A stretch of DNA of 64,000 nt from Tuwongella immobilis (GTDB lineage Bacteria > Planctomycetota > Planctomycetia > Gemmatales > Gemmataceae). The stretch is from NCBI RefSeq assembly GCF_901538355.1, contig NZ_LR593887.1, positions 2,456,920 through 2,520,919 on the forward strand, read 5' to 3'. The notes below the pieces were generated by a model. The model was given only the letters and a program-made list of their open reading frames with translations, ran no database searches and was not told the origin of the DNA. Position numbers and translations under genes: made by a program. This document shows, piece by piece, positions 16,072 through 23,553 of this stretch (its first letter is position 1; the number at the start of each line of letters is the position of its first letter).

Positions 16072-17511
16072 TTACCGATACGCCGCATCAAAATAAACGC
16101 TACACCCACCAATCGCCGTCCCAAGCCGGACTTGTTCTGCGGTGAGGACGGTTCTTTGCGATCGTGTGGAAGTTCCGGGCGGGACTCGCACGACGTACAT
16201 GCTGCCGAATCGCTTGGCTAAGCCGGAGAGAATGGCATTGCGCACCGTGGGAATAAAGTTGCCGCCACCTGTGAGAATCACCTCATCAATGCGGGAAATT
16301 TGTTGCGAATCGCAGAATTGATCGAGCGATTCGGTCAATTTCTGGCTGAACCGAGCCAACCCCAATTCCACCAGTGGCCGATCGGCATCATCGCCCACAT
16401 CGCCGACTTCGGTGATTTCGCTCGACGCATACGCTTCGCCTGCGACAAAGATTCTGGATCGGACGGCTTCGCGGCGAGTGTTCTCGATGGATTGGAACCA
16501 GGCGGCTTTCTCCGGTGACAACGGCAGAATGCATTCCTGATCCAATTGCGAGACCCCCAACGGCGTGGATTGCACGCGAATTTCGGGTCGGCGATCGACC
16601 GATTCCATCGTGAGGAATCGCACAAAGGCAAAATCGGTGGTGTACGATCCGGCATCGCAGACCAGGAAGCAGTAATCGGATCGATTCTTCTTGTAGGATC
16701 GCACAAGACTTTCATGCTCGAACATCCGTCCCAGGTGGACGGAATTGGTGTGGGCGTAGGGCTTCCAAATGATGTTGCGTCCTTCGGTGATGACGCCGAT
16801 GACGTTGGCCAGCGGTTCGGGCAAAATCGGCTCGTCCGGATCCAGCGGCCAGCCTGCTCGAGTCAGAATCTCCGAGATGAGTCGGGTGATACTCGGCGAG
16901 AGTGTCGATTGATCGACATCGAAAAATGCCGGCACGCAGATTCGCGTCGGAAATTGGCTGGGGTCCAGATTTGCTGGCACACGGATCGCTTGCAGATTCC
17001 GGAGGGTGCGTTGACGGAGATCCCGAAAAAAGGCCACGGCCAATTCGATCACATCATCCGGGCCGGATTCGGGTTGCGTTGCTGCGGCGGATTCGGGGAG
17101 CAACGCCAACATGCCGCTCAGCAGATGTTGCCAAGCGGAATGTTCGGCGGGATTCAACCGATATTGCCGGGACAATTGTTGCAATTCCGCGGATTGGATC
17201 ATTGCTCGCAATCCGCGGGGTAACTCGGTGGGAGTGCCCTGCGGAGTGCGAAACAGATGCGGCTTCCAATTGTTGCGAATCTGGTAGGTGGCACTCTCTG
17301 CCGTCCGATTGGCTTCCTCGCCGAAGCGATACCCGCCATCGACCGCCAGACGATTCACCAGTGCCGTGGTCGGATGGAAAAATCGGTCAATCGAATCCCG
17401 CGCACTCGTGTCGATATTCGCCACCGGGAAGCTCATCGATTCAGCAGATAATCGACAGGCAACCTTGGTGTAAGCGTTCCCAAAATCGATACTGAATCGA
17501 GCGGCAGACAT
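16072..17511 (-). CDS. Hsp70/actin-superfamily ATPase without substrate-binding domain
   Basis: 479 residues. ASKHA motifs in order: phosphate-1 FSIDFGNAYTKVACR (6-20), phosphate-2 LVCDAGSYTTDFAFV (about 285), adenosine motif ILTGGGNFIPTVRNAI (about 415), and near the end EQVRLGTAIGG, matching the last Hsp70 nucleotide-domain helix. The chain ends right there, so no beta-sandwich substrate domain or lid is present. GGGAGAATCTC precedes the ATG. The upstream gene, 12 bases away, encodes a protein ending in a GrpE-like domain; together they look like an ATPase and its exchange factor. ParM-like filament formation is the main alternative. Cytoplasmic; client unknown. Confidence 0.8.
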   Translation of the reverse strand: MSAARFSIDFGNAYTKVACRLSAESMSFPVANIDTSARDSIDRFFHPTTALVNRLAVDGGYRFGEEANRTAESATYQIRNNWKPHLFRTPQGTPTELPRGLRAMIQSAELQQLSRQYRLNPAEHSAWQHLLSGMLALLPESAAATQPESGPDDVIELAVAFFRDLRQRTLRNLQAIRVPANLDPSQFPTRICVPAFFDVDQSTLSPSITRLISEILTRAGWPLDPDEPILPEPLANVIGVITEGRNIIWKPYAHTNSVHLGRMFEHESLVRSYKKNRSDYCFLVCDAGSYTTDFAFVRFLTMESVDRRPEIRVQSTPLGVSQLDQECILPLSPEKAAWFQSIENTRREAVRSRIFVAGEAYASSEITEVGDVGDDADRPLVELGLARFSQKLTESLDQFCDSQQISRIDEVILTGGGNFIPTVRNAILSGLAKRFGSMYVVRVPPGTSTRSQRTVLTAEQVRLGTAIGGCSVYFDAAYR

Positions 17512-17523
17512 GAGATTCTCCCA

Positions 17524-18543
17524 TCAGTCGGGTTGTTTCACAATCGCTTTCCTGACGATGTATACGCCAAACTCCCGAGACAGTGACCACCCCGGTTGCA
17601 CAATTTGACACGGGGAATTGGTTTCGATAAATGTCTTGCTGTCGTGAATTTTCGGATCGAACGGGGCAGTCTGCTTGGGGGCTCCAATTCGCTTGACGCC
17701 GGGGAGATTGCGCAGCGACGCCGCAAACATACTCGCCGCAACCGCTTCGTTCTTCTCCACGGCAGCGACCCAGACATTGACCAATTCTTCCACGACGGCA
17801 CGCTGAAAATCGCCATCTTCCGGCATCGGCTCCGGAATGGCCCGCGCATTGGGAAGCGCGGCATCGTGCGAAGTGGCGGTCGTATCCGCAACGGGGGCAT
17901 GCGCTTGCGTTGCGGGCGTGGCCGGTGGCGGTGACGTGGCCGGAGTCGTCGTCGCAGCTTGGCGCAATTGGGCCAGCGATTGCTGATTCTGGTCGAGTTG
18001 TTGCTGAATCGTCACGCGATTGCGTTCGACTTGTTGCAAGATTCCGTGGACCAGAATCGCTTCTTGTTCCAGCGATTGTCGCAATCGAAGTTCTTGCTTC
18101 AGGAACCACAATTCTGCGAATCGCACGGCCAAATCGCCGAGTACCGGAAACAATTGCTGCTGAAATTGCGATTGCTCGGCGGGAGCGAGCGTCGCCATGC
18201 GGTCAATGGCGGCATCGAGAATCGGATCGGCGGGCAGATACGTGTGCCAGCCGCGAATCGCCTCCGCGCATTCTTCGAGTGGCAGTTGGGAAAATGCCGC
18301 CGCCCATCCCGCAGGCGTGAGCGCATACTGTACGGTCTTGCCGACTCGGATTTCTCGAAACAGCGGGGCGTCCCCCGTCAGGCAGATTGCTTTGGTCGGC
18401 GCATCCAAGGCTTTGGCGCTGGCGAACAGCCCGGCATTTTTCCCGGATTTGATGGCGCGTTGTGCCTCGCCCGGATGCCGAATGGCCATCAGAAGCGCAT
18501 TCGTGAGTGCATTGGCGGTCGATTTTGCGTCCTGCTTTGCCAT
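17524..18543 (-). CDS. GrpE-like exchange factor with winged-helix-like N-terminus
   Basis: 339 residues from the ATG at 18543. Three parts are visible. Residues 15-90 look like a winged helix (LFREIRVGKTVQYALTPAGW is a wing-like strand pair). Residues 125-195 form a long Gln-rich coiled coil, followed by a Pro/Ala/Thr linker (196-240). Residues 279-337 resemble the GrpE beta-domain: LPGVKRIG, then APFDPKIHDS (GrpE has FDP-x2-HEA), then IVQPGW and IVRKAIVKQ (GrpE has GY...RVIRPAMVKV). GrpE releases ADP from Hsp70, and the next gene is an Hsp70-like ATPase, which supports the reading. It is not the housekeeping GrpE, which lacks the N-terminal part. Homology is inferred from motifs. Confidence 0.65.
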   Translation of the reverse strand: MAKQDAKSTANALTNALLMAIRHPGEAQRAIKSGKNAGLFASAKALDAPTKAICLTGDAPLFREIRVGKTVQYALTPAGWAAAFSQLPLEECAEAIRGWHTYLPADPILDAAIDRMATLAPAEQSQFQQQLFPVLGDLAVRFAELWFLKQELRLRQSLEQEAILVHGILQQVERNRVTIQQQLDQNQQSLAQLRQAATTTPATSPPPATPATQAHAPVADTTATSHDAALPNARAIPEPMPEDGDFQRAVVEELVNVWVAAVEKNEAVAASMFAASLRNLPGVKRIGAPKQTAPFDPKIHDSKTFIETNSPCQIVQPGWSLSREFGVYIVRKAIVKQPD

Positions 18544-20873: not shown

Positions 20874-21264
20874 GACGCGTACTCAGCAAGAATTCCCGCC
20901 CGCTCGGAACATTTCCGCCAGCAGGGATACTCCATTGTAGCCAATCCACCGGTGATTCCGGTAGTCGTATCAGACAATCAGACGTTTTTTTCGCTTTTCT
21001 GTCCGCAATCTGTCGGAAATCGAATAAGCTCGTTGGACCTGCGACGTCATTCCGTCCCACTGAATTCGGGATGCACGCTCCCCCTCGAGAGCTTCCCGGT
21101 ACCGCCATCGGAGAAGAAAATTTCTTCAGATGGAACGAATTCGTGGCACGCAGCGTCATAGTTTTGGTCATTTGGGCAATTTGGAGCGAGGGATTGGGCG
21201 AGATTCTCCCAAAACGGTTCCCTTGAGTTGCCCACCCACCGATGGTTTTCAGCTTGAGGTCGGA
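20874..21264. other. Divergent intergenic region, 391 bases
   Basis: This lies between the GNAT gene (-) and the FG-GAP gene (+) and must hold both promoters. A perfect inverted repeat, GAAGAAA-A-TTTCTTC (21113-21127), lies about 140 bases before the FG-GAP start. Short open frames here have no ribosome site and read as noise. Confidence 0.4.
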
Positions 21265-23553
21265 ATGCAATCAAACCATTCTCATCGTGATTCCCAACGA
21301 CGGACCGATGCCAGGCGGGTGCGTCTGGGCATGGAAATGTTGTTGGAATCTCGCACGGCTCCGGCAGTGTTCAGTTTCGGCAGCTTTTCCTTCGAGCAGG
21401 ATCAAACGCCCAATCTTCAGACCTTCTTAGCCGTCGGCAATTATGGCGGGGCGAATGTGACCGCGCTGCCGACGGCTGCGACTGGCTCCATCACGGAGTT
21501 CCCGGAACCACCGACGACCGGATTTGATCCATCCCTGGCACTGGGGGCACCGATCAACTCCGGCGGTGGGCCGCGTGCGCTGAATCTTCCCGCGGGCAAT
21601 AATGGCACCACGGCTCGCAGTGGCGTGCAAGTTGCGTTTGCTGGCAATCAGGCGATCAACAACATTGCCGGCAACGACATCGTCATCTACGAATCCGGTT
21701 CGGTGAATACCCCCGAAGCCTACATGATTCGGGTGCGCGATGCGATCACGCAGCAATATTCGGCGTGGCACTTTTTCTCGGCCGATGAATTCACCACCAC
21801 GTCGGGAAGTGAAGGGCTGTTCGCCACGCTGTACGATTTTTCCAATATGGGAATCGCAGCGGATGGCGTGGTCGATCAAATCCAGTTGGTCAACATGACC
21901 AGCTTGGATCGGATGGTCGATGCCTCGGGGGAAGGGGTCGTTCTGCCCGAAGATAATGGGGCGACAAGCACCTTCTTGCCCGCGCCGGGTGGCCTGGCGA
22001 GCTTCCCGAACTTTGGCAGCAGCACGCTCGATCCCGATCCGTTGTATGTTGGGGTGATTCCCGGCAACACGGTCGCGCTGCCCGTCGATCTTGGGGTGAC
22101 GATCACCGCCAGCCCCGATCCGGTCATTGCCGGTAACGAAATTACCTACACGGCAACCGTGACGAATTTGGGTGGGCAGCCGTCCGCAGGGGCATCCGTG
22201 ACCATCACGCTCCCGGCGAATCTGACCGGCGTGACCTGGACGGCGAATTATGTTGGTGGATCGACCGGGAATGCCAATGGCTCGGGTGATGTCGCCGAGT
22301 TGGTCAATCTGCCGATTGGCAGCAGTGTGACTTATACCATCACTGGCACCGTTCCCGACGATTTCGATGGCCCGCTTCCGGCAACGGCGGCGATTGCGGC
22401 CGGTAGCGGTGAGCAAGATAGCGACCCGGACAATAATTCGGCCACGGCAACCCCGGATTCGGATTTGCCGCCGCCGCCCCCGCCACCACCACCACCACCG
22501 CCACCACCGCCGCCACCGCCACCGCCACCGCCACCACCACCGCCACCGCCACCCCCGCCACCCCCGCTGCCGCTCCCATCGTTGACAGATTTGCTGCCAA
22601 CGGAAGTGGCTGTCGGTTTCGGCAATGAGGCGAGCGTTGTCGACACCAATGGGGTTGAACTTTCGCGGGTGGAAACCACCGACGATCCGAATAACTCTGC
22701 CACCCGCGCGGTTCTCGGCGATGTCAACGGCGATGGTGTTCCCGAGTTGATCGTTGGCACCGGGCCGGGCGTGCCCAGTTTGGTGCGAGTGTTGGATGGC
22801 GTTACCAGCGCGGAACTCTTTGCCATTGCGCCATTTGAGGCGAGCTTCCTGGGCGGGGTGTTTGTCGCGGTTGGTGATGTCAACGGGGACGGATTCGCTG
22901 AGTTCGCCATCAGTCCCGATGAAGGCGGCGGACCGCGCGTGCGTCTGTTCGATGGCAAGACCTTCGCGCAGATCAATGACTTTTTCGGCATCGACGATCC
23001 GGATTTCCGAGGCGGGGCACGCGTTGCGCTGGGCGATCTGAATGGCGATCGATTGGCCGACTTGGTGGTTGCCGCCGGGTTCGGTGGTGGGCCACGCATC
23101 GCTGCGTTCGACGGCGCCACGCTTGGCAATGCCACGCCGACTAAACTGTTTGAAGATTTCTTCATCTTTGAAGAGACACTGCGAAACGGTGCGTATGTTG
23201 CGGTGGGCGATCTCGACGCCGATGGCTTTGCCGATCTGATCGCCGGTGGCGGTCCCACGGGCGGGCCGCGCGTGTTTGCCCTGTCCGGAAAATCGCTGAT
23301 CGAATCGAAGGGGGCCACCCAAGCGGTGCTGGCCAACTTCTTCGCCGGCACGGAAACCGATCGCACTGGCGTGCGAGTTTCGGTGGTCAATGCCGATGGC
23401 GATGATTCGGCGGATCTCGTGACTGCGGCAGGGGTTGCGGATTCCTTCGTGCGGATCTACAGCGGCGCGACTCTGTCGCCTGATGCCACCCCGGAACCGC
23501 TCGCCGAATTCGAAGCCGTCCCTGGCTTCAGCGAGCCGATCTTCGTGGGATGA
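21265..23553 (+). CDS. Secreted FG-GAP repeat protein with DUF11-like domain and polyproline linker
   Basis: 762 residues from the ATG at 21265, which has GAGGTCGG upstream. The N-terminus (RRVRLGMEMLLESRTAPA) fits the planctomycete leader related to the LExLEDRxxPA type, so export is likely. Residues about 285-385 form a DUF11-like beta-sandwich (VTITASPDPVIAGNEITYTATVTN). A run of 33 prolines (22468-22566) separates it from five or so FG-GAP/VCBS repeats (GDVNGDGVPELIVGTGPG, GDVNGDGFAEFAIS, GDLNGDRLADLVVAAG, GDLDADGFADLIAGG), which form a calcium-binding propeller. It is probably a cell-surface or extracellular adhesion/structural protein. Confidence 0.82.
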   Translation: MQSNHSHRDSQRRTDARRVRLGMEMLLESRTAPAVFSFGSFSFEQDQTPNLQTFLAVGNYGGANVTALPTAATGSITEFPEPPTTGFDPSLALGAPINSGGGPRALNLPAGNNGTTARSGVQVAFAGNQAINNIAGNDIVIYESGSVNTPEAYMIRVRDAITQQYSAWHFFSADEFTTTSGSEGLFATLYDFSNMGIAADGVVDQIQLVNMTSLDRMVDASGEGVVLPEDNGATSTFLPAPGGLASFPNFGSSTLDPDPLYVGVIPGNTVALPVDLGVTITASPDPVIAGNEITYTATVTNLGGQPSAGASVTITLPANLTGVTWTANYVGGSTGNANGSGDVAELVNLPIGSSVTYTITGTVPDDFDGPLPATAAIAAGSGEQDSDPDNNSATATPDSDLPPPPPPPPPPPPPPPPPPPPPPPPPPPPPPPPPLPLPSLTDLLPTEVAVGFGNEASVVDTNGVELSRVETTDDPNNSATRAVLGDVNGDGVPELIVGTGPGVPSLVRVLDGVTSAELFAIAPFEASFLGGVFVAVGDVNGDGFAEFAISPDEGGGPRVRLFDGKTFAQINDFFGIDDPDFRGGARVALGDLNGDRLADLVVAAGFGGGPRIAAFDGATLGNATPTKLFEDFFIFEETLRNGAYVAVGDLDADGFADLIAGGGPTGGPRVFALSGKSLIESKGATQAVLANFFAGTETDRTGVRVSVVNADGDDSADLVTAAGVADSFVRIYSGATLSPDATPEPLAEFEAVPGFSEPIFVG
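22468..22566 (+). repeat. 33 consecutive proline codons (CCN tract)
   Basis: A 99-base tract of mixed CCG, CCA and CCC codons encodes 33 prolines in a row inside the FG-GAP gene. It is a rigid linker between the DUF11-like and FG-GAP parts, and translation would depend heavily on EF-P. The opposite strand reads as a polyglycine artefact. Confidence 0.95.

What the first reader, a model, noticed from the sequence alone, without database searches (positions are those of the whole stretch)
16072..18543. Minimal Hsp70-like ATPase paired with a GrpE-like protein carrying a winged-helix-like N-terminus
Seen: an ASKHA ATPase that ends at the nucleotide domain, and 12 bases upstream a gene whose C-terminus aligns by eye with the GrpE beta-domain (FDPKIHD, then QPGW and RKAIVKQ) after a long coiled coil. 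Known: GrpE exchanges nucleotide on Hsp70. Inferred: a dedicated ATPase-exchange factor pair in which the second protein also binds DNA or another partner, without client-binding beta-domain or lid. This looks undescribed.
Basis: partly seen in the sequence, partly recalled or inferred. Interest (0 to 1): 0.75.

Follow-up and report, generated by a model that had tools for sequence, protein, structure and literature searches.

The report
Chaperone-like ATPase with dedicated GrpE-like partner
Two neighbouring genes of a planctomycete bacterium encode a cut-down Hsp70-type ATPase with no client-holding part and a GrpE-like partner with an added winged-helix-like end; the pair stays together in relatives from several bacterial groups and looks like a chaperone motor turned into a molecular switch.

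Summary
Window 16072-17511(-) encodes a 479-aa ATPase (P0001), and 12 bases upstream 17524-18543(-) encodes a 339-aa protein (P0002). P0001's predicted structure aligns with Hsp70 nucleotide-binding domains end to end (Z about 30) and stops there; six catalytic positions are invariant in 28 sequences. P0002's C-terminal domain has GrpE as best match in a profile search of PDB sequences, Foldseek (rows 1-2) and structural alignment (rows 1-6), and matches GrpE profiles far above shuffled controls; each score alone is modest. Its N-terminus resembles winged helices (Z 7); a myxobacterial relative passes Pfam's MarR_2 cut-off. The genes are adjacent in 24 of 26 family genomes that have the ATPase and in 28 of 29 public-contig loci, partly the same genomes, including records titled Verrucomicrobia, Myxococcales and Deltaproteobacteria. 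Neither protein has a Pfam or NCBIfam match over cut-off, and eight paper searches showed no such architecture. Closest print: Hsp70, GrpE and an Hsp70 'sans its peptide-binding domain' in GAP1-N2 systems (PMC7159879). Most likely an Hsp70-type nucleotide switch with its own exchange factor, no longer a chaperone. Nucleotide exchange, complex formation and target binding are inferred. New variant of a known kind.

The parts
16072..17511 (-). P0001: 479-aa Hsp70-type nucleotide-binding domain (ATPase) without substrate-binding domain or lid
   Evidence: AlphaFold2 pLDDT 85.6, pTM 0.83; the 50 Foldseek rows shown are Hsp70 family; VIA-align Z 30.5, 341 residues aligned; hhalign to four Hsp70s of the own genome P 5.1e-9
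17485..17487 (-). D9, phosphate-1 aspartate, invariant
   Evidence: invariant in alignment A4; aligned with IDLGT of DnaK
17263..17265 (-). K83 (NWK), counterpart of the catalytic lysine of Hsp70 (SIKR)
   Evidence: invariant in A4; aligned with K of the DnaK SIKR motif
16816..16818 (-). E232 (PEPLAN), counterpart of the NEPTAAA glutamate of Hsp70
   Evidence: invariant in A4; aligned
16633..16656 (-). phosphate-2 motif DAGSYTTD (D286, G288, T291, D293 invariant)
   Evidence: aligned with DLGGGTFD
16261..16269 (-). adenosine motif GGG (415-417), invariant
17524..18543 (-). P0002: 339-aa winged-helix-like / coiled-coil / GrpE-like protein
   Evidence: frame; model pLDDT 82.9, pTM 0.44
18271..18534 (-). 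N-terminal winged-helix-like domain, residues 4-91
   Evidence: VIA-align: VanR Z 7.0, BpsR 6.6, PadR 6.3, MukF 5.8 at residues 1-91; relative in L127 matches MarR_2 at 27.5 bits against a cut-off of 27
17950..18132 (-). long coiled-coil helix, residues 138-198 (stalk-like)
   Evidence: DSSP of the model
17833..17934 (-). Pro/Ala/Thr-rich disordered linker, residues 204-237
   Evidence: pLDDT under 50 for 204-206 and 208-237
17536..17823 (-). GrpE-like domain, residues 241-336: two helices then a beta domain
   Evidence: pLDDT 80 for 241-250, then 92-98; GrpE is best match and beats controls
17512..17523 (-). 12-base spacer between the two genes, with GGGAGA before the P0001 start
   Evidence: gap of -1 to 12 bases in 23 of 24 loci, 153 in the other, where the start choice may be at fault

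Best explanation
The two genes form a self-contained ATP-driven switch made from the ATPase half of an Hsp70 and a dedicated GrpE-type exchange factor. Shown by prediction and comparison: P0001 has the Hsp70 nucleotide-binding-domain fold with invariant catalytic residues and no client-binding half; P0002 has a GrpE-type C-terminal domain, a stalk-like coiled coil and a winged-helix-like N-terminus; the genes are co-inherited as a tight pair. Inferred: P0002 dimerises, its C-terminal domain grips the ATPase and opens the nucleotide cleft to release ADP, and its winged-helix-like end binds DNA or a protein target. ATP binding and hydrolysis then decide whether the ATPase sits on P0002, and so whether P0002 can hold its target. 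It would work like an Hsp70-exchange factor pair but would not be a protein-folding chaperone.
For: P0001 fold; profile search of PDB sequences lists Hsp70 ATPase domains on top, E 0.004; hhalign to own-genome Hsp70s P 5.1e-9, co-linear, catalytic residues matched. P0002 C-terminus: GrpE is first of 14 in PDB sequences (E 0.086), Foldseek rows 1 and 2, VIA rows 1-6 with Z 8.0-9.2, shuffle control 0 of 300. Winged helix. Pairing: 24 of the 26 ATPase-bearing genomes among 95, 28 of 29 contig loci, partly the same genomes, 39 of 40 loci in a joint count that repeats some of these. Matched trees, r 0.84 over 31 loci, 0 of 2000 permutations; three paralogous pairs in verrucomicrobial genomes each keep their own partner type. 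No gene recurs beside the pair across the 15 of 29 loci looked at by eye.
Against: No activity or complex was tested. PDB sequence matches of P0002 to GrpE are not significant alone (E 0.086; E 1.8, sixth of 8); no Foldseek match reaches E 0.001 and the best is 0.097; two of the six VIA rows have large rmsd (15.6 and 29.6 A), the tightest being 2.9-3.0 A over 87-91 residues. The PDB search with the ATPase profile also lists an actin-like ATPase (5ljw, E 0.024). PMC10825016 (passages read) says DnaK-type Hsp70s served by GrpE keep a long beta-hairpin in subdomain IIB; the counterpart in P0001 (357-377) is short and barely stranded. The P0002 model has pTM 0.44, so domain arrangement is unknown, and stalk and GrpE-like domain are separated by a disordered linker. 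One full-length ATPase locus (genome G090, L045 = L125) has no recognisable partner gene, and G013 has only an ATPase fragment without partner. Much of the tree agreement follows from sharing an operon.
Confidence: 0.6

Rival explanations
1. A DNA-partition or anchoring system like ParM-ParR: an actin-like ATPase that forms filaments or clusters and a DNA-binding winged-helix adaptor that regulates it; the GrpE likeness is a by-product of binding an actin-fold ATPase.
For: The ATPase has a DxGxxxTK phosphate-1 motif; weak Pfam matches of family members are mainly to actin-like proteins (MreB-like_C 15 of 28 members, best 3.6e-4; ParM_N 5 of 28, best 2.4e-5; PilM_2 8 of 28, best 0.0028). An actin-like ATPase is among the PDB sequence matches (5ljw, E 0.024). 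VIA also lists the centromere-binding protein AspA for the N-terminus (Z 6.4).
Against: The 50 rows shown by both structure comparisons are Hsp70 family (lower rows not shown); the Hsp70 catalytic lysine has an invariant counterpart; for P0001 itself the Pfam scores are below cut-off (for the other members the cut-offs were not shown). GrpE likeness of the partner is not expected.
Confidence: 0.13
2. A divergent proteostasis pair: the ATPase works with a separate client-binding or J-domain protein encoded elsewhere, P0002 being an ordinary exchange factor with an extra dimerisation domain.
For: Hsp70 and GrpE folds; GAP1-N2 systems contain an Hsp70 sans peptide-binding domain beside Hsp70, GrpE and DnaJ-fused proteins (PMC7159879, passages). 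The same genome has a second dedicated GrpE-Hsp70 pair with a longer Hsp70.
Against: No gene recurs beside the pair in the 15 loci looked at (first 60 residues of each frame by eye, no family search); some verrucomicrobial partners are only 183-187 aa. Partners elsewhere in the genome were not looked for.
Confidence: 0.17
3. The beta-domain match is convergence: P0002 is a regulator whose C-terminus binds something else, and co-transcription has no exchange-factor meaning.
For: Sequence E-values to GrpE alone are weak; no Pfam GrpE match.
Against: GrpE comes first in three searches and beats controls in a fourth comparison, and the neighbour is an Hsp70-type ATPase, the partner GrpE is known for.
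Confidence: 0.1

Closest known systems
GrpE (PF01025) with DnaK
   Same: C-terminal domain: two helices plus beta domain with FDP..H, PGW/KGY-like and KAxV/RPAxV-like elements; a long helix before it; partner is an Hsp70-type ATPase
   Different: Added winged-helix-like domain; disordered linker between stalk and C-terminal domain; no Pfam match; partner lacks the client-binding half and the long IIB hairpin
Hsp70 / DnaK (PF00012)
   Same: Complete nucleotide-binding domain with catalytic residues
   Different: No linker, substrate-binding domain or lid; about 95 residues longer than a usual nucleotide domain, with extra helices around 99-175; not found by PF00012 in its own genome
GAP1-N2 GTPase systems with Hsp70, GrpE and an Hsp70 sans peptide-binding domain (PMC7159879, passages read)
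   Same: An Hsp70 ATPase domain without client-binding half is encoded with a GrpE
   Different: Multi-gene systems with GTPases, FNIII or DnaJ proteins and a complete Hsp70, this theme predominantly in actinobacteria and firmicutes; no winged-helix GrpE is mentioned in the passages read
ParM-ParR plasmid partition (recalled)
   Same: Actin-fold ATPase paired with a small DNA-binding adaptor
   Different: Here the fold comparison gives Hsp70 and GrpE

Membership tests
Hsp70 (PF00012) | Hsp70 nucleotide-binding-domain fold | tested here: met
   VIA Z 30.5 with 3.1 A over 341 residues; the 50 rows shown are Hsp70 family; Foldseek 6.5e-13
Hsp70 (PF00012) | Catalytic residues (phosphate-1 Asp, Lys, Glu, phosphate-2 Asp/Thr/Asp) | tested here: met
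   D9, K83, E232, D286, T291, D293 invariant in 28 sequences and aligned to DnaK; their catalytic role is recalled
Hsp70 (PF00012) | Substrate-binding domain and lid | tested here: not met
   Protein ends with the last helix of the nucleotide domain
Hsp70 (PF00012) | Pfam PF00012 above cut-off | tested here: not met
   Absent from the own-genome PF00012 search; 1 of 28 members matches at E 0.04
GrpE (PF01025) | Beta domain and two short helices | tested here: met
   VIA rows 1-6 are GrpE, Z 8.0-9.2; Foldseek rows 1-2, E 0.097 and 0.58; hhalign P 2.2e-5, 0 of 300 shuffles
GrpE (PF01025) | Pfam PF01025 above cut-off | tested here: not met
   No match; own-genome PF01025 search finds two other places
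GrpE (PF01025) | Dimer through a long paired stalk helix directly before the short helices | tested here: inconclusive
   Helix 138-198 is there, but a disordered linker 204-237 follows; dimer not modelled
GrpE (PF01025) | Nucleotide exchange on an Hsp70 | not testable with these tools
   needs biochemistry
Winged-helix regulator (MarR-type) | Winged-helix fold in the window protein | tested here: inconclusive
   VanR Z 7.0, 3.6 A over 76 residues, and further proteins recalled as winged-helix at residues 1-91; a Z of 7 is middling by the tool's own note; no Pfam match in P0002 for this part
Winged-helix regulator (MarR-type) | Winged-helix domain in a relative | tested here: met
   L127 partner: MarR_2 27.5 bits, cut-off 27; the other five partners scanned have no match over a cut-off (L129: O-methyltransferase dimerisation domain, 24.1 against 25.6)
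Winged-helix regulator (MarR-type) | DNA binding | tested here: inconclusive
   Net charge of the N-terminal slice is -2 to +6 in 29 proteins; the next slice is +4 to +9 in L126, L127, L129 and L132-L134 but -1 to +2 in L130, L131 and L135; binding itself not tested
ParM-ParR-like partition system | Polymerising actin-like ATPase | tested here: inconclusive
   Only weak Pfam matches; Hsp70 rows fill the lists; polymerisation not testable

The most novel reading that the evidence does not exclude
An Hsp70-type ATPase that has lost its chaperone half acts as an ATP-timed loader or remover of a winged-helix protein on DNA: the exchange factor is itself the client and the DNA-bound component, an Hsp70-style counterpart of ParM-ParR or of AAA-plus remodelling of regulators, spread over at least three bacterial phyla (by record titles) and diversified into three paralogous pairs per genome in some Verrucomicrobia.
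Probability: 0.3. Interest if true: 0.8.

Novelty: new variant of a known kind. Interest (0 to 1): 0.6.

Why it matters
GrpE is known as a helper of client-holding Hsp70s. A conserved pair in which the client-binding half is missing and the exchange factor carries its own extra domain would show that the Hsp70 nucleotide cycle can run without clients, as a switch. It gives a minimal natural system for the question of what GrpE does to the ATPase domain alone, and it adds two protein families that the annotation libraries searched here leave nameless.

Tried and rejected
A single-sequence scan of genome contigs with P0002 gave nothing. Pfam and NCBIfam gave no family over a cut-off for P0001 or P0002 and PADLOC none at E 5 (the L127 ATPase has a weak PADLOC match, PDC-M61B, E 9e-4, and the L127 partner two at E 0.008 and 0.013). 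PDB sequence searches with the single proteins gave nothing of use. The weak BrxB and FlgN matches were rejected as below cut-off. The one search match in G051 (L024, E 5.7e-4, one stop inside) was rejected as doubtful; no ATPase lies beside it. The class hit G275 (E 1e-4, 39 residues) and the phylum hit G363 (E 6e-4) are fragments of doubtful value. A constant third gene was looked for by eye in 15 of the 29 contig loci: frames that I take, from recall, for hisD, hisC and hisB lie upstream in four of them (L111, L115, L118, L119), so this is local synteny. A co-fold of the two proteins could not be run with the tools at hand. Literature: eight searches; passages read in PMC7159879, PMC11090510, PMC8215388, PMC10825016 and PMC12987570, none in full; the others were seen in search listings only.

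Full report
What is there. On the minus strand, 17524-18543 encodes a 339-aa protein (P0002) and 16072-17511 a 479-aa protein (P0001), with 12 bases between stop and start. The window lies in a 6.69-Mb single-contig genome (G000) of a family whose public relatives are mostly titled Gemmataceae, Gemmata or Planctomycet-. Each protein matches once in it at E 0.001.

The ATPase. AlphaFold2 with 28 sequences gives pLDDT 85.6 and pTM 0.83. The 50 Foldseek rows shown are Hsp70 family (best 6.5e-13), and VIA-align gives Z 30.5 to a chain of the ribosome-associated complex, 30.1 to Ssz1 and up to 29.8 to DnaK domains, with model residues 1-479 on chain residues 1-389 in the first row. Profile comparison with four Hsp70s of the same genome gives P 5.1e-9 with a co-linear alignment from the phosphate-1 to the phosphate-2 motif, and in global mode on to the adenosine motif. 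D9, K83, E232, D286, T291 and D293, the counterparts of the Hsp70 catalytic residues, are invariant in 28 sequences; the roles of the residues are recalled, the alignment is. The protein ends where the nucleotide domain ends, so client-binding domain and lid are absent. Yet PF00012 does not find it in its own genome, and the commonest weak Pfam matches of its relatives are to actin-like proteins; in PDB sequences Hsp70s lead (E 0.004), with an actin-like ATPase at 0.024.

The partner. The model (pLDDT 82.9, pTM 0.44) has a winged-helix-like part (4-91), helices, a 61-residue helix (138-198), a disordered linker (204-237), two helices (241-278) and a beta domain (283-336) at pLDDT 92-98. GrpE is the first match in three searches: profile of the C-terminal domain against PDB sequences (3a6m, E 0.086, first of 14), Foldseek (8gb3_E and 3a6m, rows 1 and 2, E 0.097 and 0.58) and VIA-align (rows 1-6, Z 8.0-9.2; rmsd 2.9-3.0 A in the two tightest and over 15 A in two). 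In hhalign with 21 planctomycete GrpEs the C-terminal family gives P 2.2e-5, probability 76%, and 0 of 300 shuffles reach the score; whole-protein profiles give 46-49%, and the whole-protein profile lists GrpE only sixth of 8 in PDB sequences. None of these numbers is large alone, but they agree on the same region. Rows 7-14 are, from recall, winged-helix proteins on residues 1-122; Z 7 is middling. In the relative of a Myxococcales record (L127) the N-terminus passes Pfam's MarR_2 cut-off (27.5 against 27 bits); the other five partners scanned there have no match over a cut-off. By inspection the partners in L127, L129 and some verrucomicrobial loci carry two such units, and a short verrucomicrobial form (183-187 aa) only one. 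That these N-termini are homologous to that of the window is not shown.

Do they stay together? In 95 family genomes the ATPase matches in 26 and the partner in 24. Both genes lie side by side in 24 genomes (in G046 the partner was recognised only in the second look). The exceptions are G090 (ATPase, no partner seen), G013 (an ATPase fragment) and G051 (a doubtful partner match without ATPase). In genome contigs the ATPase alignment found 29 loci, 28 with the partner upstream on the same strand; many are the same genomes as above, and the miss, L125, is G090 again. The record titles include Verrucomicrobia, Myxococcales and Deltaproteobacteria; some titles are doubtful, such as a Bacteroidales title for L121, which groups with the Gemmataceae. 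The genomes behind L127, L129, L130, L131 and L132 have one to three ATPases each, a fourth being possible in G320 where two pieces end at contig edges; all ten loci fetched there and the third ATPase of G319 carry the partner (several repeat loci). The spacing is -1 to 12 bases in 23 of 24 loci. Distances in the two trees correlate (r 0.84, 31 loci, 0 of 2000 permutations; 0.71 among 11 loci outside the main family, not permuted), and the paralogous groups of Verrucomicrobia keep their partners; elsewhere the trees differ in places, as for L120, L121 and L128. Shared operon history alone would give much of this. The pair is patchy: 24 of 297 genomes of the class (two of them fragments) and 2 of 240 of the phylum of G319, one the centre itself and one a weak fragment.

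How it would work. Known from DnaK-GrpE: the C-terminal part of GrpE touches subdomains IA/IB and IIB and opens the cleft (PMC10825016, passages). By analogy P0002 would release ADP from P0001, and its winged-helix-like end would bring the ATPase to DNA or a protein. Without a client-binding half the output must be the complex itself: bound or released, according to the nucleotide. The steps after structure are inference. Against the simple analogy, that paper ties GrpE use to a long IIB hairpin, which P0001 lacks (residues 357-377). DNA binding is open: the N-terminal slice has net charge +5 here and -2 to +6 across 29 proteins, while the following slice is +4 to +9 in six of the distant relatives and -1 to +2 in three.

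What is known. PMC7159879 (passages) reports Hsp70 with GrpE, and in a subset an Hsp70 sans peptide-binding domain, in GAP1-N2 systems. PMC11090510 (passages) reports Hsp70-like units, but with substrate-binding domain, fused to McrB or McrC proteins. A 2025 review of GrpE-like factors uses 'winged' only for the C-terminal beta domain and has no hit for DNA-binding, fusion or Planctomycet- (PMC12987570, term search). Eight searches of the open library showed no title or abstract on a winged-helix GrpE; subscription papers are mostly not covered.

Verdict. A real, conserved and, in the libraries searched, unnamed two-gene unit, by prediction an Hsp70 ATPase domain plus a GrpE-like protein with a winged-helix-like end. 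The mechanism as a nucleotide switch is likely, not shown.

Noticed in passing
G000:C1:3069517-3072602 (L136: 7518-8666 and 8597-10603): The same genome has a second dedicated pair: a protein with a C-terminal GrpE domain (PF01025 above cut-off) directly followed by an Hsp70 with more than the ATPase domain. Similar long frames with C-terminal GrpE occur in several relatives (L073, L074, L076-L080); their neighbours were not checked.
   Followed up: partly
L130-L135, L150, L152-L156, L158, L160: Verrucomicrobial genomes G318, G319 and G320 carry three kinds of the ATPase-partner pair, with different N-termini on the partner (two winged-helix-like units, one short unit, or a form like that of the window).
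   Followed up: partly
L125 and L045 (genome G090): The only full-length ATPase found without a recognisable partner gene upstream; the partner may be lost, moved or too diverged.
   Followed up: partly
window 21130-23553 (+): 807-aa reading frame with a run of several dozen prolines before what look like FG-GAP-type repeats; the label FG-GAP is recalled.
   Followed up: no
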